This document shows, piece by piece, positions 21,640 to 37,689 of a stretch of 37,689 nucleotides of DNA. Position numbers and translations under genes: made by a program. Positions within the stretch are counted from its first letter, which is position 1. Each line of letters begins with the position of its first letter. Source of the stretch: Pseudopyrenochaeta lycopersici (Eukaryota > Ascomycota > Dothideomycetes > Pleosporales > Pseudopyrenochaetaceae); NCBI GenBank assembly GCA_003313425.1, contig NHZP01000134.1:1-37689 (forward strand), read 5' to 3'. Below the pieces are notes generated by a model. The model did not search any database. It was given only the letters and a program-made list of their open reading frames with translations, and was not told where the DNA came from.

Positions 21640-22385
21640 GCTACTTGGTGTGCTTCCAGCGGCACGGCGCGACAAGCGAACGGACGAGGATCAAGAGCAC
21701 TTTCTGCTGATGCGGCGAAGATTTTTAGCAGATAGGTTTGTGGCAGCATGCCTACCCAGCGATCCACCGAGAGCTAGCAAGAGACGGTAGGGTCGTGGAG
21801 ATATTGGATGCCATCTACTACAACCGAGAGCAGGCTGTTCTAAGCGATGCACGTGCACGACAGTCTGGGAATACACACTGCACTGAGGAGATAGTCTACG
21901 GCAGAGCCATGATAGAGTCGCCATTTCAGACCATGGCAGAGCGCGAAGAGTTTAGGCGTGTAAGCCTCGACTGGCACTGGGTGTTGGGATTTGCATCTGC
22001 CTGGGAGGAGGGTCGAGTACATCCTGCTATTCGCTCCAAGATGTTAGCAGAGTAAGAAGAGAAGGAGCTAGCGAGATGGGCAAAGCTGGCGAAAGTTGAC
22101 CTTACGGCCCAACTGAGGCGATTGGTAGGGCGGCCAGATGCTGAGTTCAGAGGCAAGCAGACAGATAGCCTAGAGGCAATTATGCAGCGAATTCTTTGTG
22201 TGCTGGTAGTCATGAGCACAGGCGGTAGGAAGAGTATGCGATTTATGCTACCGGCTGCTCGTACGCTAGATGGGGGTATAACCGTGGTGATTATACCCTT
22301 AACTGCTCTCTAGGCCGGCTTTTAAGATCGCTGTGACCGCCTTGGGATCCATTGTGGGAGGGCAGGCGGCTACCAGGCCTTATGA
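21640..22385 (+). pseudogene. OrsD-YR-RecQ family fragment D (recombinase end plus first helicase lobe)
   Basis: The fragment begins inside the recombinase domain (RQSGNTHCTEEIVYGRAM at about 21856-21909). The tyrosine keeps its place nine residues after the position of the catalytic His, which is Asn here. The stretch VSLDWHWVLGF follows, then RRLVGRPDAEFRGKQTDSLE and a spoiled Walker A (VVMSTGGRKSMRFMLPA, near 22205-22255). TVVIIPLTAL comes next, and, with stops read as Gln, RCDRLGIHCGRAGGYQAL. It ends near 22385. It aligns well to residues around 900-1060 of copy A. It lies between the tail of copy C and the start of copy B in the same orientation, so it is a deletion product of another array member. 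Confidence 0.72.
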
Positions 22386-27469: not shown

Positions 27470-28110
27470 AGTATTTATAAAAGAATAGTTAACTAGTTTA
27501 AATAAGAAAAAAGAAGAAGAGAGTAAAGTAATTTAATATAAGATATTAGAAAGAGAGTAGATAATAGCTAGCTGTATTAAATAAGAAAAAAGAAGAAGAG
27601 AGTATAGTAATTTAATATAAGATATTAGAAAGAGAGTAAATAATAGCTAGGTGTATTAAATAAGAAAAAGAAGAAAGAGAGTAAAGTAATTTAATATAAG
27701 ATATTAAAAGAAGGTAGAATATAAGTAAGTAGTTTAAATAAGTAAAAAAAAAGAGTAAAGTAATTTAATATAAGATATTAGAGAGAAAGTAAAGAATAGG
27801 CAAGTAGTTTAAATATAAAAAAAGAAGAAAAGGAGTAAAGTAAATTAATATAAGATAAAGTAAAGGATAGGTAAGTAGTAATAATAGGAAAAAGAGTTAG
27901 AAGAGTAAATTAATTTAATATAGTATATTAGAGGGCGAGTAGAGAAAGTGTAAGTAGTTTAAATAAGAAAAAGAGTTAAGAGAGTAAAGTAATATAATAT
28001 AGTATAGAGAGAGAAAGATAGTAGGGATTTGCTAACCGCTTTTATAAGGTTATAAAAGAGGAGAGTAAAGTAATATAATATTGTATAGAGAGAGAACGAT
28101 AGTAGAGATT
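27470..28110. repeat. Degenerate tandem repeat, about 75-85 bp units
   Basis: Seven to eight units share AGTAAAGTAATTTAATATA, often followed by AGATATTAGA, GAAAAAGAAG-type runs and TAGTTTAAATAAG. The last two units carry AGTAATATAATATAGTATAG-like versions and GATTTGCTAAC. It separates copies B and A. Confidence 0.8.
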
Positions 28111-28123
28111 TGCTAACAGCAAA

Positions 28124-28225
28124 GACCGAAGGGATTAAGGTCGTTTTTGGGGTTAATCCCCTGAAAAACCCTAGCAGTTGGGGCCTTAATCCCTAAGGTC
28201 GATAATATCAATGGGATTAAGGTCT
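28124..28225. repeat. Nested inverted repeats at the start of the intact gene's block
   Basis: Arms at 28124-28142 and 28182-28200 are 19-bp inverted repeats with three mismatches (core GGGATTAAGG / CCTTAATCCC). Between them is a second hairpin (28143-28170, GTTTTTGGGG against CCCCTGAAAAAC). A third copy of GGGATTAAGGTCT lies at 28213-28225. Its role is unknown; it could be a small element end or a boundary structure. Confidence 0.65.
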
Positions 28226-28532
28226 GAACTTGCGTGGATTGCGCTGCAACTTCACAGTCTAATGCATCTAACTCCGTTGCGTTGATTGAACCAACTTTCA
28301 TGACGATTGGACAAGTATGTCGTGAGATATTTAATGAAAAGTGTAATGGTTTTCGTGGTTGTTAGGGTAGGCCGTGCGCGTTTGAGTTGAGTAACAATGC
28401 CAAGATTAGGGTTTCGAGACACCATACAAAGTGCCCGGGGGAGAGTCCGACAGCGTGATAGACAAGGCATCACAAAAAGAAAGTTCATTGAAGTACAGTA
28501 ATTTCCGTTAGAACGACCGCGAGGATTGCAAC

Positions 28533-28573
28533 CATATAAGGAAGAGAAAGGGCAATTTTATAGAGTATATATT
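28533..28573 (+). promoter_or_regulatory. TATA-like segments upstream of copy A
   Basis: CATATAAG (28533-28540) and TATAGAGTATATATT (28559-28573) precede the ATG at 28593. The first, about 55 bases upstream, is the better placed candidate. No ACGCGT cluster like that of copy B is present. Confidence 0.3.
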
Positions 28574-28592
28574 GTCTATGTAGATTAATACA

Positions 28593-31500
28593 ATGGAGCA
28601 GTTTACCAGCATTTTTGAGTATTTGCCCGCACAGCGCATCGCCGTATGCAAGAGCCACCAACAGGGTGTTATTAAATCCCAGTTGAAGACCCATTTAGAC
28701 ACCAAGCATCAGGAATATGTTCGCAGGACACGTTGGGAAATCGTCGAGGTAGTACAGGCAGAGGCATCATTGCAACAATGGGCCATGACCCAAGACGAGG
28801 TTGTTTACCCCAGCCCAGAGTCCAGCCCGTTGCCCCATTTGCCGGTGTACCACGACGGATTGCGTTGCCAGCAGTGCCCGTACGTTAATCGTAGCATCAA
28901 ACGTATCCAAGAGCATTGTCGACAAGAGCATGGTTGGAAGGGGGACAGTCGGCCGAAGCCAGGGCGTCCGTCAGGCACGCGAACCATGTGGGCAACCGTG
29001 TCATGCCAAAAGTTCCAAAACACCAGTAAGATGGGCCGATTGTTTGAGGTCAGCGCAGCCACAGAGGCCCAGCACACAGGCGACGCGGACGTGGACGTAA
29101 GCCGGGCGATTGAGGAGTCGTTGGTCCAGGCCACAGCCCAGTTAGAGGAGTTGGAAGAGAAGAAGAATTCCACCATCCAAGCCAACGACGACCGGTACGA
29201 TTTTAGCAAGTGGTTGGATCGAGCGGGTTGGGCCCGACATTTGAAAGGGTTGAAGCGTGATTGGTTGTTAACAATGGCGACAAAGCCCACGACCAAGGAG
29301 CGCGCATTGTACGAGGTATGTTGGGCAGCACGCATGGTCATGTGGCGGGCACAGCAGGCGTCCAAGGCAAGTGTGGTCGGGTTACCAGCCATGATGTACA
29401 TCAATCGGCGAGAGTTTGGTGGCAAGGGCAACGAGAAGCCGTTCAATGCGCAGCAAACAGGAAAAACAATGGTCAGGTACAGCAATTGGTGGTTGGAGAT
29501 TATTTCATACATTTGGCGGACCCACGAGTTGCCCGTTGTCAGCAGCCGCAACGACGACGTGGAGGTGGAAGGAAAGAGACCGCCGTATCACATCAGTGGC
29601 AGGCAGGATATGTGGTTGCAAAAGATCAAGATGATCGTAGGGCGGGACCAGGAGGAGGATTGGTTTGAGGAGATGGAGTCGGACGGCGAGGGCGACGAGG
29701 AGAGGTTGGACGAGACGCAGGAGGAGGAATTAGAGGGCCATGTGTTGCAGTTCATGTTAGCATTGTTGGACCATTTTTTGGGCGACAGTGAGTACACGAG
29801 CGCGTTGATCAGTGGTATGGCCGTGTTGGGGATCAGCGCCGAGGACGGTTGGTTGAGCCCGTTGGTATACACGCCCAAGCAGGCCGCCATCGTCAACACA
29901 TCACGCATGTTGGTGTTGTACAAGTCGACCCAGTTGCGGCAGCAAGAAGTAGGCAAGTTAATGGCCGAGGGTTGGGGAGCAGAAGATGCAAAAGCCATGG
30001 CACCAAGCCATTTCCATTTGGTGCAGGAGATGGCCCAGCGGTTTATGACGTTGACCGATTACAATGGCAAGCCAACGCCCATTGATTATATACAGCGGTT
30101 GAAGGCATTTGGATTCCACATCCGGTACAACACGAACGCAGAGGGAGTGGTCGATTGGAACGGCGATACGTTGTTGTACCGTAACATCCGGTTCAGCATG
30201 CCGCAAATGCGGTCGATGATCCACGGCACAATGGCCAGCACACGACAACAGATTGTAAGGGATTTAATGTTGTTGCAGATAGACGACGAGGGCGCGATAG
30301 CCAAAGACACAACGGCGTTGCCAGTCATCGATTGGGCAAGGTTGGTCGACAATGCAGCCGAGCAGCGGGTTGGGTGGAGTTTCATGGAAGACCCGCGCAA
30401 CAAAAATGCCACAAGCGTAGATGATCCCAAGCAGTGGTTAGCGCAGCGGGTACAGAAGGAAAAGGCCATACAAAATAGTTTTATCGACGTTGAGGTGACA
30501 CGGGCGGCGTTACCCAGAGGTGGAAGCGTGGTGTGGTTACGGGACCGCATACAGGCATACGGGCAAGCCATGAAAGAAGCCCGACACAAGTTGGCAGCGT
30601 TAGTCCATATGACAGGAGGTGCACCAGCGCGGGCGACGGAGTTGGTGACGGTCAAATACAAAAATAGCGCGAATGGTGACAGTCGAGGAATTTTTATCGA
30701 AGATGGGTTGGTAGTGTTTGTTACCAAATATCACAAGAATATCGGACAGTCAGGCAACGGTAAAGTAATCCACCGATATTTACCACGCGAAGTAGGCGAA
30801 TTAGTCGTTTATTATTTGTGGTTCGCCAGCCCGTTTTGGCACCAGATCGAGGGGGCGGTTCGTGGCAAGGCGGTAGACACGAGCGCATATATGTGGGAGC
30901 CCCAGCCGGAGCAGGGTTGGCAGAAACCCGAGAGGAAAAGAAGACGCGGTGCCGAGAGCGTCCAGTGCCGCAGCAAGAGCGCAAAGAGAGACAGCAGATG
31001 CCGCAGCGTCGGTCGAGCGAGCCAGGATTCGTGGGAAGAGGGGGCCGAGTCGGGTGACGATACAGAGCAACCAGACGACCAGCAGCGCCCCATAGAGTTG
31101 TGGAACACCAACCGGGTCAAGCACGCGATGCAGAAAGCATCGTTGCCGCATATGGGTGTCAAGTTAAATGTGCAGGCGTGGAGACATGGCACCAAGGCGA
31201 TGTACCGTCGATACATTCACAACCGGGCCGCGGTCAAGGCATTTTTAGACGCCGACGAGGACAGTGACGGTTCAGAAAACGAAGATGAGTTTTTCGACAT
31301 CCAGACAGGTCACGGCAGCCGCATGGCCGGCGGCATATACGGACGACCCGTCACGGAGGCCATGTTCAGCGTCGAGGCGAAGAGGGTCGGGTTACGTTTG
31401 GCCAGCATGGAGTGGCATGCGTTTTTGCAGATTCCGTCCACCATGTCGATGAAACCGCGGAAAGGCACGCAGGCAGCAGCAGCCCGTAAAGAAGCAGTAG

Positions 31501-33398
31501 AGGAAGAATACCGTCGGTGGAAGATGATGCGGTTGGTGGACGTAGACGCCGAGTTGAAGAATTTGTTGGGGGACCAGGCCGAATTCCGCAGCGTCCAAAG
31601 GCCAGCCATCCAAGCGATTATGCAGCACAAGAGCCCAGTAGTAGCCATCATGGGCACAGGGGCCGGCAAGAGCGTGTTGTTCATGTTGCCAGCGTCGGTG
31701 TCCACCGGGGTGACGATCGTGATTGTTCCGTTGGTTGCATTGCGGTTCGACATGAAAGAGCGGTGCGAGCAGTTGGGCATTGTCAGTGCAGAATGGAACA
31801 GTCGACGGCCGCACGAGTCCGCGCAAGTCATGTTTGTAACGCCCGAGGCAGCGGTGGGCGAGATGTTTGGCGATTACATCACCCGACAGCGGTTGATAGG
31901 ACGTTTGGATCGGATTGTGGTGGACGAGTGTCATGCCGTATTAGATTCGTTGGACGGTTTCCGTAGCCGGATGTTGAAGTTGAGAAGTTTGGTTCGAGTG
32001 GAGACACAGATGGTGTATTTAACGGCGACATTGCGGCCCAGCGAAGAGCAGCAGTTCATCGACGTGATGGGATTACCGTCCAAGAGGCAGTGCCAGTGGT
32101 TCCGCGGACAGACGACGCGTAAGAACATCCGATATCGAGTACATGCGTACGACACAGCCGACGAGCAGCAAGCAGTCCAGCATTTGGTGGAGGATTTGAA
32201 GAATAAGTACCCGTTGCCCGGCCAGGTTGTTGTGTATTGCGGTTTAGTGAAGCGAACAAAAGACATGGCCAAGAAGTTAGGGGCCGTTTGTTACCATCGG
32301 GAAGTTGGCAGTATCGAAGAGAAGAAGGAGATTGTCAAACAATTAACCAGTGGACAACAGCAGGTGTTCACAGCGACCAACGCGTTAGGGTTAGGGATCG
32401 ATGCGCCGACGATCCGCGCGGTAGTTCACATAGGCACAATCCGCAAGATGCGGCATTACGCACAAGAAAGTGGCCGGGCAGGGCGTGATGGTAAGCCGAG
32501 TGAGGCAATCATCATGCGAGGGTATCGGAAAACACGACAAGGGAGGGTGTATGGTAAGTTTGGCAAGGACGTGGAGGCAGAGATGCAGGATTTGATTGCG
32601 GGAGAGGGGTGTATGCGGAAGGTGATTGACCAGGCGATGGATGGGGCGGATGGAGTGGATGGGGTGGACACGCGGTGGGAGTGCGAGGAGGATGAGGAGC
32701 GGTGTCAACGTTGCGCGAGGCCAGGGGTAGGGAGGGCGCAGGAAGAGGAGTGGGTGACAGCAGAAAAGATGGAGTTTGAGCAGCAGGGCAGGGGGCGGAA
32801 ATGGTTGGCGGAGCAAGAGATGGAGCGGCAGTGCAGAGAAGCAGCAGAGGTGGAGGCATTGGTGGAGTTGATGGAGGAGTGGCGGGTAGGGTGTCAGTTG
32901 TGCCGGGCGTGGGGGGAAGATGGAAGGGGACATGAGTTGGAGGATTGCGTTCACGAGCAGGCGGAGAACGCGCGAGAAGGGTGCGAGAGGTTCCAGAAGG
33001 ATTGGATTTATGTTAAGTTTTCATGTTGTTATGATTGTAAATTGCCGCAGGCGTTATGCAGGAGTTTTGAGATGGATATCATGGATGGGGGGTACAGAAA
33101 AAAGGCAGGGAGAAGATGTCAGTACGAGGGCGTGTTGATGAAGACATTGGTAGTGGCGTTAATGCGGGAGGTGTTTAAGGTTCCGGAGTTTTTTCACGGG
33201 GCGATAAAAGAGGATGGGGTTGCGGGGGGGTTGGGGTTTGAGGAGGACGAGGAGGACGAGGAGGACGAGGACGAGGTTGTTGGGGGGACATTCCGGGCGA
33301 TCGTGCAATGGGGGAGCGGGAGGAAGCGATGGGGAGGGATTGAAGGGAACAAGTTGAGTTGGATTATTGGGAGGATTGTTGGGTGTTTGAAGGGTTAG
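28593..33398 (+). CDS. OrsD-zinc / tyrosine recombinase / RecQ helicase fusion protein, copy A (telomere-linked helicase)
   Basis: This is an intact 1601-aa protein without introns. Residues 1-115 form an OrsD-like (PF12013-type) region: C19...H34-x4-H39, then the conserved PLPHLPV and C92-x2-C95-x12-H108-x4-H113. Residues about 660-930 carry a tyrosine-recombinase signature: GGAPARATEL (R680), TKYHK (K712), QAWRHGT (Q-x-x-R864) and GHGSRMAGGIYGR, with H907 and Y916 nine apart as in the box II end of the family. Residues about 985-1310 are a RecQ motor: Walker A GTGAGKS (1021-1027), DECH (1111-1114), LTATL, NALGLGID and QESGRAGRDG (1291-1300). A Cys-rich segment (about 1363-1500) and an acidic stretch follow. 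Telomere-linked RecQ genes are known in fungi; the recombinase part suggests DNA breakage-rejoining as well as unwinding. Leucine is encoded only by TTG/TTA. Confidence 0.85.
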   Translation: MEQFTSIFEYLPAQRIAVCKSHQQGVIKSQLKTHLDTKHQEYVRRTRWEIVEVVQAEASLQQWAMTQDEVVYPSPESSPLPHLPVYHDGLRCQQCPYVNRSIKRIQEHCRQEHGWKGDSRPKPGRPSGTRTMWATVSCQKFQNTSKMGRLFEVSAATEAQHTGDADVDVSRAIEESLVQATAQLEELEEKKNSTIQANDDRYDFSKWLDRAGWARHLKGLKRDWLLTMATKPTTKERALYEVCWAARMVMWRAQQASKASVVGLPAMMYINRREFGGKGNEKPFNAQQTGKTMVRYSNWWLEIISYIWRTHELPVVSSRNDDVEVEGKRPPYHISGRQDMWLQKIKMIVGRDQEEDWFEEMESDGEGDEERLDETQEEELEGHVLQFMLALLDHFLGDSEYTSALISGMAVLGISAEDGWLSPLVYTPKQAAIVNTSRMLVLYKSTQLRQQEVGKLMAEGWGAEDAKAMAPSHFHLVQEMAQRFMTLTDYNGKPTPIDYIQRLKAFGFHIRYNTNAEGVVDWNGDTLLYRNIRFSMPQMRSMIHGTMASTRQQIVRDLMLLQIDDEGAIAKDTTALPVIDWARLVDNAAEQRVGWSFMEDPRNKNATSVDDPKQWLAQRVQKEKAIQNSFIDVEVTRAALPRGGSVVWLRDRIQAYGQAMKEARHKLAALVHMTGGAPARATELVTVKYKNSANGDSRGIFIEDGLVVFVTKYHKNIGQSGNGKVIHRYLPREVGELVVYYLWFASPFWHQIEGAVRGKAVDTSAYMWEPQPEQGWQKPERKRRRGAESVQCRSKSAKRDSRCRSVGRASQDSWEEGAESGDDTEQPDDQQRPIELWNTNRVKHAMQKASLPHMGVKLNVQAWRHGTKAMYRRYIHNRAAVKAFLDADEDSDGSENEDEFFDIQTGHGSRMAGGIYGRPVTEAMFSVEAKRVGLRLASMEWHAFLQIPSTMSMKPRKGTQAAAARKEAVEEEYRRWKMMRLVDVDAELKNLLGDQAEFRSVQRPAIQAIMQHKSPVVAIMGTGAGKSVLFMLPASVSTGVTIVIVPLVALRFDMKERCEQLGIVSAEWNSRRPHESAQVMFVTPEAAVGEMFGDYITRQRLIGRLDRIVVDECHAVLDSLDGFRSRMLKLRSLVRVETQMVYLTATLRPSEEQQFIDVMGLPSKRQCQWFRGQTTRKNIRYRVHAYDTADEQQAVQHLVEDLKNKYPLPGQVVVYCGLVKRTKDMAKKLGAVCYHREVGSIEEKKEIVKQLTSGQQQVFTATNALGLGIDAPTIRAVVHIGTIRKMRHYAQESGRAGRDGKPSEAIIMRGYRKTRQGRVYGKFGKDVEAEMQDLIAGEGCMRKVIDQAMDGADGVDGVDTRWECEEDEERCQRCARPGVGRAQEEEWVTAEKMEFEQQGRGRKWLAEQEMERQCREAAEVEALVELMEEWRVGCQLCRAWGEDGRGHELEDCVHEQAENAREGCERFQKDWIYVKFSCCYDCKLPQALCRSFEMDIMDGGYRKKAGRRCQYEGVLMKTLVVALMREVFKVPEFFHGAIKEDGVAGGLGFEEDEEDEEDEDEVVGGTFRAIVQWGSGRKRWGGIEGNKLSWIIGRIVGCLKG

Positions 33399-34480
33399 GG
33401 TCACGTGAGTGGCATGAGACCCCAGTGGGATCCGGAGTGACATTTTCAAAACAGTACAGTATAACGTAATAGAGGCAGTAGCAGTACAGGGTTTGTAAGG
33501 GTGTAAGGAGTGTTTTTGATAGTTATTTGATAAGAGTTGGGGTTAATGCCCGTACAATAATCCCAGGGAAGACGTAAACACCCGTACAAGAATTTGCAGG
33601 GGAGTAGAGGGAAGCCCGTACAAGGATTTAGGGGAGAAGGTAGATGTTCGTACAAGGATTGCAGAGAGAAGTGGGATGCCCGTATAAGAATTTACAGGAG
33701 AAGTTGGACGTCCGTACAAGGATTGTATGGAGTAGTTAAATAAGGGAGGGAGAGAGATTTGAAGAGTTGAATGAAGGGAGGGAAAGAGATTTAAAGGAGA
33801 GGAGGGGAATGCCCGTATAAGAATCCCAGGGGAGAGGTAACCCGTCCGGTGCAGAACGCGGAGCGTAACAGAGGGATGGGGGTTTGGGCCCGTAAGGTGT
33901 CATAAGAAGAAAGGAGGGGAAAGAGGGAGAGAAGGGGTACCCGAACCCGAAGGGCAGAGGAAACCCGTAGGGTGTAATAGAAGGGGAGGCGTAAAAGGTA
34001 GGGTAAGTTCCGGCCCCAGCAGGGGCGGAAGTTACGGGCAACAAAGCGATATAAAAAACAGGGGTAAGTAAGGTAGGGTGGAGAGGGCAGCAAGGATGGA
34101 GGGCAAGAAAGGGTTGCAGAAGCAAGGTAAGAAGGTAGAGAGTGGGCGGACAGTAGGTAGACGTTAGGTGCAGGTAGGAGGAGTTCCGGCGCCGTCAGGG
34201 ACAGAATTTGGGAGTAGTAAGGAATAGTAAAGTTCCGTTCGGGCCGGAACCGAAATCAGAAAGGTAGCCCCGACCCGTTCAGTAGTATGTTGTAGCCGTA
34301 GAGAAGAGGCCCGTAGAGAAGACGAACAAGGCAGGTAGCCGGTTAGTGTAAGAGGAAAGGAGAAGAAGAGGGGAAACCGTCCGGTGTAGGAGAAATGAAG
34401 GGTTAGGCGGTGAGCCCGTCCGTGCAGGAAAAGAAGCCGAACACAGCGGGTTGGTAAGGATATAAAGTAGAAAGAAGAGT
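33399..34480. other. Downstream region of copy A, no gene
   Basis: There is no coding sequence on the + strand. - strand open frames are long only because the + strand is purine-rich. Recurrent words are CCCGTACAAGGA (33548-33720), CCGTCCGGTG (33843, 34378) and TTCCGG-type near-palindromes (34008-34035, 34182-34250). Confidence 0.6.
33548..33830 (+). repeat. Regularly spaced CCCGTACAAGAA motif, about 32-34 bp apart
   Basis: Six units at about 33549, 33581, 33615, 33647, 33679 and 33711, and a further one near 33811. Each reads CCCGTACAAGGATT or a close variant, followed by a more variable purine-rich spacer. This is a degenerate minisatellite. Confidence 0.75.
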
Positions 34481-35885
34481 TTGGATTATATTAGTAAAAG
34501 AAGGTTTAGGTTTTAAAGTAAGGCAGATTAGGAAAAAGTATAATGTTTTAATAAAGTAGATTGCAGGGGAAGAAGGCGAAGAAATGAGGATTAGGGTTTT
34601 AGAGGTAAAGAGAAGGTTAGAGTGGTAGGAAAGAGGTAAAGGGGAATGTTAAAAGCGAAAAAAAGGGAGAAGAGAGTTGTAGAGAAGAGAAAAGGGCGGT
34701 GAGAGTTGGGAGGACAGGTAAAGATGAAGTTAAAAAAGTTGTGAAAGGGAGGTAAGTAGAGAAAACAGGAGAAGGTAGAGAGAGTAGAGAAAGTAGAGTA
34801 GGAGAAAAGAGAAGAAGAGAAAGAAGAGAAAAGAAGAGTAAGATAAGAGTAAAAATAGAAGAAGGAAAGGGTAAAGTGGTAAAACGAGTTAGTTTGGTAA
34901 GAAAAGAAGAAAGGCAAAAAGGGTAAGAGTAAGTAGAAGAAAAGAGTAGTTTAGTAGTTAAAAGAGGGTTATAAAGAAAGAAGAGAGTAAGGGAGAGGGA
35001 GAGGGTTAGAGTTGAAAGAAAGAGGTAAGGGGGAAGGTTAAAGAGAAGAAAAGAGAAGAAGAGGAGGAAAGAAAAGGTAGTAAGTGTTAGAAGAGGGGAA
35101 AGAGGTTGAGAGAGTGTAAGAGTAAGGGTTTGGAAGGTTAAAAGAGTTAGAGTTGTAGGAAAGGATAAGAAGGTAAGTTGAAAGAGAAAAAAGAGAAAAG
35201 AAAAAGAGTCGCAGGAAAGAGAAAAGAAGGTTAAAAGTAGAGGGAAAAGGGAAGGTAAGAGTTAGAAGGAGAAGTAGAGAGAAAGTAAAAGAAGTTTAAC
35301 AAGGGAGGTAAGTTGTAAAAAGGAGAGAGTAGAGAAAGTAGAGTAGAGAAGAAGAGAAGAGGAAGGAAAAAAGTAAGTAGAGAGTAGGTGCAAGTGTGAG
35401 AGAGAAAGTAAAGAAAAGTAGAGGGGTAAAGTTGTAAAAGTCGTAGAAAAAAGAGAAAAGAAGAGTAAGAGAAGAGTAAAAAAGGAGAAGGAAAAAGAGG
35501 AAAGAGTAAAAGGATAAGTTTAGTAAGAAAAGAGTAAATAGAAGAAAAGAGGGTTATGGTTTGAGAAGAGAGTAAGGGAGAGGGAGAGGGTAAAAAAAGA
35601 GAGGGTTATGGTTTTGAGAGAAAGAGAGTAAGGTTTAGAGAGGGAAAAGTAGGGAAAAGTAGAGAGTAGGGGAAAAGGAGTAAGTTAAAGAGAGAAGGTA
35701 AAAAGAAGTGTATAGTAAAGTAAAGGAGAAAAGAGAGAAGAGTAAAAAAAAAGTAGAAATGGAGAAGGGTTAGTTTAAGAGAGAAAGAGTTTAAAAAGAG
35801 AAGAGAGTTTTGTTAGATAGAAAAGGGAGAAGGAGGATAGAAGTAGGAGTAAAGGGTAGGAAAGAGAGGAGAAAGAAAGAGAGTA

Positions 35886-35980
35886 GAGGGTGAGGGAGAG
35901 TAAGAGTAAGGGTGAGGGAGAGTAATAGTGAGGGTGAGGGTGAGTAAGAGTGAGGGTGAGGGAGGGGGAGAGGGTTAGGG
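35886..35980 (+). repeat. GAGGGTGAGGG repeat ending in GGGTTAGGG
   Basis: Short imperfect units (GAGGGTGAGGGAGAGTAAGA) give more than eight GGG tracts within about 95 bases, ending with a TTAGGG at 35975-35980. The spacing would allow G-quadruplex folding. Confidence 0.7.
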
Positions 35981-36180
35981 TTTTTGGAAGAAGGAGAGGG
36001 TTAAGGTTTGAGAGAAGTAAGGGAAAGGGGTTAGAGAGAGGGGAGAGAGAGTTAAATAGTAGAAAGAAGAGTAGAAAAAGGATGAGGAAAAAGTAAGGTG
36101 TTTAGAGAAAGTAAGGTAGTAAGGAAAGAGTAAAGAAAGAGAAGAAAAGAAGGGTTAGTTTTTTAAGAAAGGAGGGAGAG

Positions 36181-36246
36181 TAGAAGTTGGGAGAGAGTAG
36201 AAGTTGGGAGAGAGTAGAAGTTGGGAGAGAGTAGAAGTTGGGAGAG
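36181..36246 (+). repeat. 17-bp tandem repeat, four units
   Basis: Three exact units of TAGAAGTTGGGAGAGAG and a partial fourth. Confidence 0.9.
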
Positions 36247-36274
36247 TTGGGGTTGTAGAAGTAAAAGCAGAAGT

Positions 36275-36343
36275 AAGAAGAAGAAGAAGAAGAAAAGAAG
36301 AAGAAGAAGAAGAAGAAGAAGAAGAAGAAGAAGAGAAGAAGAA
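36275..36343 (+). repeat. GAA trinucleotide tract
   Basis: About 69 bases of (GAA)n with two single interruptions. Long GAA tracts are known to form triplex (H-DNA) structures. Confidence 0.85.
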
Positions 36344-37385
36344 GTAGGAGAGAGGAAGAGAGGTAAACAGGCGGAAAAGTAGAGGTTTAAGAAGAGTAGG
36401 AAAAGAAAAGAGAGGTAGGAGTTAGGAGTAAGAGTAGAGGAGAGAAAGTAGAAGTAAAGGGATGTAGGGGTTGAGAAGGGTTAGAGTAGTAAGAAAGGCA
36501 GGGAAAGAGTAAAAGGGGGAAGAAAGTGTAAGGGAGAGGGTTAGAGTTGTAGGAAAGGTTAAAGGGGGTTAGTTAAAAAGAGAAAAGAAGGGTAAAAGTA
36601 GAGGAAAAAGGGAAGGTAATAGTTAGAAGAAGAGGTAGAGAAAAGTAAAAGAAGTTAGAAAGGAAGGTAGGTTGTAAAAAGAAGAGAGTAGAGAGTATGT
36701 AGAAGTGTGAAAAAATAAGTAAAGAAAAGTAGGAGGAAAAAAAAAGTAGAGAGGTAAAGTTGTAAAGGTAGTAGGAAAAAGAGTAAAAAGAAGAAAGAAG
36801 AAAAGAGGAAAGTAAGTAAAAAGAAAAGAAAAAAAGTTGAGGAAGAGAAGAGGAGGTGGAAGAAAAGGTTGTTAAGAAGTAAAAGGGAGAGTTAAAAAGG
36901 AAGAAAAGAGTAAGGAAGAGAGGGAGAGGTTAAAAGGAGTAAGAGTGTAGTAGAGTAAGAAAGGGAGGGTTAGGGTTGTAAGAGAAAGAGGAGGTTAGAG
37001 TTGTAAGAAGAGAGAAGTTTAAGTTTAAGGTAAAGGAAGGAGTTTAGAGAAGAAGGAGAAGAATGGGAAGGAGAAGAAGGAGAGGGGGGAGGAAGGAGAA
37101 GAAAAGGGTAAAGAGTAGGAAAGAGAGGGTGAGCAAGTAAGGTAAGGTGTAAAGAGTTGGAAGTAGGGGTAAAGAAAAAGAGGGGAGGTAAAAGGTAAGA
37201 AAGAGAGGTAAAGAGAGGGGGGGAGTTAGGTAGTAGAGGAGAGGAGTAAAAGAGAGAAAAGGGTAAAAAAAGAAGGGTTGTAGTAGAGTTAAAAGGGAGT
37301 TGAAGGTGTAGGAGAGGTAGGTGTGAAGTTAGAAGAGTAGTAAAGGGTTGAGAAAGAAGGTAGTGAGGGTGGGAGAAAGGAAAAG

Positions 37386-37450
37386 AGGAGAGGGTTAGGG
37401 TTTTGGAGGAGGAGAGGGTTAGGGTTTTGGAGGAGGAAAGGGTTAGGGTT
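37386..37450 (+). repeat. 24-bp repeat carrying TTAGGG
   Basis: Three units of GAGGAGGAGAGGGTTAGGGTTTTG or near versions, with TTAGGG at 37395-37400, 37419-37424 and 37443-37448, all in the same orientation. Further single TTAGGG copies lie at 33395, 34591, 35975 and 36970. Confidence 0.85.
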
Positions 37451-37689
37451 TTAAGAGAAAGAGAGTAGGGAAAAAGAGAGAGTTAAAGAGAGAAAGTAGA
37501 AGAAAAGAGAGTTTTTTTTTTGAAAAGAAGAGTAGAGTAAAGTAAAGAAGAGAAGAAAGGATAAGAGTAAGGAAAAAAAGTAGAAGAAGTAAAGAAAAAG
37601 AGAAGAGAGTTTTGTTAGAAAGGTAGAAGTAAGAGTAAAAAGTAGGAAAGGGAGGAGAAAGAAAGAGGGAGAGGTAAGGGTAAGGATGA

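What the first reader, a model, noticed from the sequence alone, without database searches (positions are those of the whole stretch)
28297..37689. More than 9 kb with essentially no CT dinucleotide on one strand
From 28,578 to the end (9,112 nt) I find zero CT on the + strand, and only one (28,576-28,577) after 28,296. AG, its reverse complement, is very frequent, so the effect is strictly strand-asymmetric. CA, CC, CG and TC are all present. The DNA immediately to the left has normal CT. The block covers promoter, gene and noncoding DNA, so codon bias cannot explain it, and RIP (CpA to TpA on both strands) does not fit. Candidate explanations, all inference: a cytidine deaminase with CpT preference acting on exposed single-stranded + strand (the 3'-ending G-rich telomeric strand after resection, or the non-template strand of R-loops); a strand-specific modification or nuclease that selects against CT; or selection against AG in antisense RNA.
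Basis: partly seen in the sequence, partly recalled or inferred. Interest (0 to 1): 0.95.

Follow-up and report, generated by a model that had tools for sequence, protein, structure and literature searches.

The report
Telomere element lacking its own target
A gene-bearing element found at many chromosome ends of a fungus (very probably a tomato-root pathogen) has almost no CT letter pair on its telomere-ward strand, and since all 23 copies examined are joined to the chromosome right behind a CT, the missing pair likely keeps the element from becoming a landing site for its own kind.

Summary
In detail: 0 CT in 9,112 nt where about 200 are expected, on one strand only. The block is the body of a subtelomeric element held here in 23 near-identical, partial or RIPed copies. 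Its 1,601-codon gene has an OrsD zinc finger, an unannotated tyrosine-recombinase-like domain and a RecQ helicase. It is not RIP (RIP here spares CpT), and miscalling is very unlikely (no missense footprint). Nor is it simply C-to-T conversion: at four-fold sites before T the lost C was replaced by A, G or T (T 16 of 70; conversion predicts about 33). CT is avoided by any synonymous route. Four flank types have near-identical empty sites carrying that CT; one is the last CT before another chromosome's telomere. I infer that the element attaches 3' of CT on the strand ending at the telomere and purged this dinucleotide so that newcomers cannot attach inside it. A 47%-identical paralogue has a CT-normal gene but a CT-free distal tail, as expected if exposure falls off from the chromosome end. 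The causal link and enzymology are untested.

The parts
27494..28112 (+). Left flank: RIP-like, A+G-rich repeats of about 79 bp, the DNA the element was joined to; repeats of the same type lie next to the telomere on contig C17
   Evidence: Tandem repeats 27494-28001; flank differs between copies; C17 end L062
28113..28114 (+). CT at the left junction; the element's common sequence AACAGCAAAG follows in 23 of 23 copies
   Evidence: empty sites
28115..28296 (+). CT-normal leader with inverted GGGATTAAGG-type repeats (possible recombinase or promoter sites, inferred)
   Evidence: 13 CT against 11 expected in 28113-28296; inverted repeats; shared by copies
28297..28592 (+). 5' region of the gene, 1 CT (28576) against 11 expected
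28593..33398 (+). Intact 1,601-codon ORF, 0 CT: OrsD zinc finger + tyrosine-recombinase-like domain + RecQ helicase
28611..28934 (+). OrsD (PF12013) domain, residues 7-114
30132..31436 (+). Tyrosine-recombinase-like domain (residues 514-948, the range aligned to 4a8e); candidate catalytic residues R664, K715, R864, H907, Y916
31590..32492 (+). DEAD and Helicase_C domains, residues 1000-1300, RecQ type
33399..34500 (+). Noncoding tail with repeated modules (CCCGTACAAGG, GTTCCGG), 0 CT against 26; short blocks 76-92% identical to the tail of paralogue L031
34501..37689 (+). Purine-rich tail, C 0.6%, 0 CT (only 3 expected); related tails at about 65-70% on other contig ends

Best explanation
This is a telomere-region element whose copies are joined to the chromosome directly 3' of a CT on the strand that ends at the telomere, and it has likely purged CT from that strand of its own body so that newcomers cannot attach inside it. 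Shown: the junction rule, the empty sites, the outward orientation, the absence of CT and its avoidance by any synonymous route. Inferred: when a chromosome end erodes or is resected, the 3'-ending strand is exposed; the element's own protein (zinc finger, recombinase-like domain, RecQ helicase) or another factor joins a new copy behind an exposed CT; any CT inside a resident copy is a point where it can be cut short and replaced. TTAGGG repeats have no CT either, so the first usable CT lies inside the telomere. Copies with a long CT-free distal tract would be shielded; exposure would fall with distance from the end, which would explain why a related family is CT-free only in its distal tail and why the leader, furthest from the end, keeps its CTs. 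RIP of dead copies re-creates CT (from CCA and CCG), which would make dead copies landing sites.
For: Left junction CT|AACAGC in 23 of 23 copies with 13 distinct 12-nt flank endings, although CT is only 1.4% of positions in the 800-nt left flanks of 22 of them. Empty sites, best match 98-100% over about 160 nt, for four flank types: TTCT|ATAAG, CCGCT|TTGAA, AAAGACT|AAGTAG, TTCGCT|AACCG; a fifth, ACCGCT|TAGG, at 84%. From the CT counts in the flanks of those four (6, 14, 5 and 3 per 800 nt, the junction CT included) chance gives about 3e-9 (hand product). C23's flank is 100% identical over the 800 nt compared to the end of C17, and the junction is the last CT before C17's telomere, 50 nt away, with no CT beyond it. 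C174-type and C40 junctions use two successive CTs of one array. 13 of 14 copies on contigs over 75 kb point to the nearer contig end; the other, C92, points to the end that has TTAGGG. Avoidance, not conversion: four-fold G/V/R codons before T have T 16, A 12, G 42, C 0; conversion predicts T 47% (P 3.6e-5), avoidance 25% (p 0.87); of 19 well-aligned xCT sites of L031, 15 kept the C and lost the T; no missense footprint. Paralogue L031: 5' flank and ORF CT-normal (102/85, 203/198 observed/expected), tail 1 CT against 47 expected after nt 57.
Against: The leader 28115-28296 keeps 12 CT and is not purged. The right end of the element was not seen, so insertion with a resumed flank and terminal capture cannot be told apart. 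On C92 and C83 the telomere is 68 and 38 kb beyond the gene; only the first 4-5 kb of that matches the tail, the last 1.5 kb of C92 is CT-normal other DNA and the rest was not seen, so something seems able to be added beyond a CT-free tail. The CT at the junction could be the element's own first two bases, used as microhomology. Three copies share a young CT at 34245 and three others one at 28331, so single CTs are tolerated for a while. The 13 flank endings need not be independent events; for 8 of them no close empty site was held (5 have only repeats at about 73-89%, some of which lack the CT; 3 have none). All copies belong to one family of one genome. The selection strength needed has not been modelled.
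Confidence: 0.5

Rival explanations
1. Strand-specific deamination: a cytidine deaminase with CpT preference acts on exposed + strand DNA (resected telomere or R-loop) and turns CT into TT; purifying selection keeps the protein.
For: TT is in excess (499 against 281); pyrimidine-ending two-fold codons before T end in T in 51 of 51; where L031 has CT in well-aligned coding stretches the window has TT in 71 of 157.
Against: At four-fold sites T is not in excess (16 of 70 against about 33 expected). Of 16 homologous four-fold sites with C before T in L031 or L034, 11 became G, 2 A, 3 T. No C-to-T missense excess: 4 forward against 6 backward of 149 differences, rank 21 of 30 sequences; the relatives used as yardstick may themselves be CT-free, which would blunt that test.
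Confidence: 0.13
2. Selection against AG in antisense RNA: the - strand has no splice acceptor over 9 kb, so telomere-derived antisense transcripts cannot be spliced, or splice only at the boundary (an extreme AG exclusion zone).
For: A bare AG is what nearly every 3' splice site needs (established knowledge), which fits a dinucleotide-level one-strand rule and avoidance by any route. At the boundary of the CT-free tail of L031 the - strand reads CTGAC TTTTGCTTGA TAG, like a fungal branch site and acceptor (sequence; consensus recalled).
Against: No transcript data. It does not explain the CT at the junctions. The window's own boundary (28576, 28295) has no good branch-site match by eye. 9 kb is far longer than the exclusion zones I recall.
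Confidence: 0.12
3. An unknown strand-specific nuclease, modification or RNA-level process selects against CT (or CU), and the CT at junctions is a separate matter, for instance microhomology with the element's own first bases.
For: The avoidance evidence fits any selective agent.
Against: It needs two unrelated reasons for the same dinucleotide on the same strand.
Confidence: 0.18
4. Sequencing or assembly artefact that reads CT as TT on one strand.
For: Single-technology long-read assembly (PMC6034849 passages); some copies carry indels.
Against: Conserved A, L, P, S and T columns are kept (174 of 179) and none of 21 departures at conserved columns is of the CT-to-TT type; CT is called normally in the leader, RIPed copies and paralogues; of 19 xCT sites of L031, 15 are xCA, xCC or xCG here.
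Confidence: 0.02

Closest known systems
Telomere-linked helicase (TLH) genes of fungi (Fusarium oxysporum, PMC12857005; Magnaporthe and Ustilago recalled)
   Same: RecQ-type helicase in many near-identical copies at chromosome ends (occurrence at many ends in F. oxysporum seen in passages of PMC12857005)
   Different: This gene has a tyrosine-recombinase-like domain and a CT-free telomere-ward strand; TLH ORFs of F. oxysporum are about 3.5 kb (same passages) against 4.8 kb here. No paper in the held library has both 'telomere-linked helicase' and 'tyrosine recombinase'. Whether other TLHs have either feature was not tested
Tyrosine-recombinase mobile elements (Cryptons, Starships recalled; Xer/Cre fold)
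   Same: Predicted fold and R-K-R-H-Y residues; a short target at the junction
   Different: Right end and circular intermediate not seen; fused to RecQ; copies point towards the telomere
Telomere-attaching retroelements (FoTeR, PMC12857005; MoTeR and HeT-A recalled)
   Same: Build up at chromosome ends
   Different: No reverse-transcriptase family matched in the ORF; joined at CT, whereas FoTeRs are associated with telomeric repeats (passages)
Transposon target immunity (Tn7, Mu; recalled)
   Same: Protects resident copies from newcomers
   Different: Those use proteins; here the target dinucleotide itself is removed from one strand (inferred)

Membership tests
Telomere-linked helicase (TLH) | RecQ-family helicase domain | tested here: met
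   DEAD and Helicase_C; profile best matches RECQ1 and RecQ chains, E to 2.3e-48
Telomere-linked helicase (TLH) | Multi-copy, next to chromosome ends | tested here: met
   23 copies held; 13 of 14 on contigs over 75 kb point to the nearer contig end; C92 and C83 end in TTAGGG
Tyrosine recombinase superfamily | Catalytic fold | tested here: met
Tyrosine recombinase superfamily | Conserved Arg, Lys, Arg, His/Trp, Tyr | tested here: met
   R664 24 of 26; K715, R864, H907, Y916 26 of 26; the assignment to catalytic roles is by recalled motif, activity untested
Crypton or Starship element | Two precise ends with resumed target sequence | tested here: inconclusive
   Left end precise; right end not reached
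RIP-mutated repeat | C-to-T at CpA on both strands explains the missing CT | tested here: not met
   RIP of copies L024 and L028 hits CpA and CpG; CpT 1 of 758 and 3 of 571
Deaminase footprint (APOBEC or AID type) | C replaced by T in the target context | tested here: not met
   Four-fold sites and missense test
Helitron | HUH Rep endonuclease fused to a helicase | tested here: inconclusive
   Pfam scan of the ORF lists only OrsD, DEAD, Helicase_C and ResIII; no dedicated test

The most novel reading that the evidence does not exclude
A new kind of self-immunity in a mobile element: a tyrosine-recombinase/RecQ telomere element captures chromosome ends at the last CT on the 3'-ending strand and has erased that dinucleotide from its own telomere-ward strand across promoter, gene and noncoding tail, so that live copies cannot be used as attachment sites while RIP-killed copies, which regain CT, can.
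Probability: 0.42. Interest if true: 0.96.

Novelty: categorically new. Interest (0 to 1): 0.9.

Why it matters
Complete loss of one dinucleotide from one strand over 9 kb, through an intact 1,601-codon gene, is not a state that I know from mutation bias, codon bias or RIP. If the link to the attachment site is right, it shows how strong competition between elements for chromosome ends can rewrite a whole gene at the dinucleotide level, and it gives fungal telomere-linked helicases, whose role is (to my knowledge) unsettled, a testable activity: capture of chromosome ends at CT.

Tried and rejected
RIP as the cause: rejected. Base-calling artefact: rejected. C-to-T conversion as sole route: disfavoured. 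Position effect of the telomere as such: telomere-adjacent DNA of C5, C18 and C92 has normal CT (79/85, 82/84 and 78/84 observed/expected). Rfam: no match in 27900-37689 up to E 1. Viral contigs: 8 stretches matched a pattern, none a relative. Relatives in other species: 43 proteins found (27 of them used, 25 in the alignment) but no DNA for them, so it could not be tested whether their genes are CT-free; protein sequence alone cannot show it. Left end of the L034 family: homology runs past the 1.5 kb held, so its junction was not found. Right end of the element: not found. Fragment C8 (L070): a CT-bearing distant relative with no hold on the question. Papers: searches; no title or abstract start in those listings describes a CT-free element or a recombinase in telomere-linked helicases, but the library lacks most subscription journals, and of the papers only passages of PMC6034849 and PMC12857005 were read.

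Full report
What was checked. The + strand of 28578-37689 has no CT; about 200 are expected. One CT lies at 28576, and 13 lie in the 184 nt 28113-28296. The signal comes from the ORF (0 against 185), the 5' region (1 against 11) and the proximal tail (0 against 26); the last 3.2 kb has hardly any C and adds little.

Where it is. The window is contig C134 of a genome of 62,731,430 bases in 188 contigs. This agrees closely with the PacBio assembly of Pyrenochaeta lycopersici ER1518 (188 unitigs, 62,731,747 bp; passages of PMC6034849), so the species is very probably that one. The CT-free tract belongs to a unit whose left end, 28113, is common to the copies. 23 copies are held, fully or in part; the genome also has tail fragments on C62 and C76. 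Contigs C92 and C83 end in TTAGGG on the same strand as the gene, so the + strand is the 3'-ending strand of the chromosome.

How CT was lost. Among codons ending in C or T, C is 392 of 552 before A, C or G, and 0 of 73 before T. In two-fold codons only T is possible. In four-fold Gly, Val and Arg codons before T the counts are T 16, A 12, G 42; conversion of C to T predicts 47% T (P 3.6e-5), proportional avoidance 25% (p 0.87). At 16 homologous four-fold sites with C before T in L031 or L034 the window has G 11, T 3, A 2. Over all 157 well-aligned coding CT sites of L031 the window has TT in 71, GT 22, AT 19, CA 12, CC 8, CG 8 and others 17; at codon position 2 the C stayed and the T went in 15 of 19. 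Conserved Ala, Leu, Pro, Ser and Thr columns are kept in 174 of 179, and the window shows no excess of A-V, T-I, S-F, L-F or P-L changes (4 forward, 6 backward of 149; rank 21 of 30), with the caveat that the relatives may be CT-free too. RIP has hit two copies, at CpA (16-44%) and CpG (4-21%), but CpT in 1 of 758 and 3 of 571 sites.

Paralogues. L031 (47% identical, intact ORF) has normal CT in its 5' flank and ORF but 1 CT against 47 expected in 1,398 nt of tail, counted from the loop of a 15-bp perfect hairpin behind the ORF. The tails of the L034 family share modules with it; in their nt 560-1110 the CTs are mostly followed by A or G (15 of 17, 13 of 15 and 18 of 20 in L034, L037 and L036, against 962 of 1670 in the left part of the window), as RIP of CCA and CCG would leave. 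The CT-free zone thus begins at different places relative to the gene, but lies on its telomere side.

The junctions. In 23 of 23 copies the unit starts right after CT, with 13 distinct 12-nt flank endings. For four of them the held sequences contain empty sites at 98-100% with the CT in place and different DNA after it; a fifth is at 84%; three (C83, C170a, C170b) have none; the other five have only distant repeats, some without the CT. The clearest case is C23: its flank is 100% identical over 800 nt to the C17 chromosome end, and the element sits exactly behind the last CT before the telomere repeat, 50 nt from it.

Interpretation. The dinucleotide that the element is joined to is the dinucleotide that its own telomere-ward strand lacks. 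The simplest reading is self-target purging under competition for chromosome ends. It would explain strand specificity, the outward orientation, coverage of coding and noncoding DNA, avoidance by any route, and the distal-only pattern in L031. It does not by itself explain the CT-bearing leader or what lies beyond the element on C92 and C83, and the right end is unknown. I put it at about one half; an unknown selective agent with junction CT as a separate matter, deamination, and antisense splice-site avoidance share most of the rest.

Noticed in passing
L063 (C18 right end), L069 (C92 right end), L044 (C5 left end): Telomere-adjacent DNA of C18 holds an ORF that looks like a capsid-type protein of small circular DNA viruses (recalled resemblance). 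C18 and C92 share the motif CTAGTGTGGCG...CCTATATATGAT right before TTAGGG; C5 has it about 0.6 kb inside its telomere.
   Followed up: no
window 21741-22289: A fragment like the helicase part of another TLH family (68% to L034) lies about 6 kb left of the element, so this end seems to have been built up repeatedly.
   Followed up: no
L025, L026, L027 at the position matching window 32926: Three copies are cut at the same place and followed by CT-normal DNA with GGACTGGACTGGATT and its inverted repeat, perhaps another transposon.
   Followed up: no
L031 1382-1414: Perfect 15-bp palindrome with a 3-nt loop at the start of the CT-free tail, also seen by eye in the L034 tail in RIPed form; the tail start ATCAAGCAAAAGTC resembles the window element's 5' end AACAGCAAAGACC.
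   Followed up: partly
   Followed up: partly
window 1-28296: CT, AG, GC and TA are in excess of expectation here, the opposite for CT of the element next to it; probably RIP-decayed DNA.
   Followed up: partly
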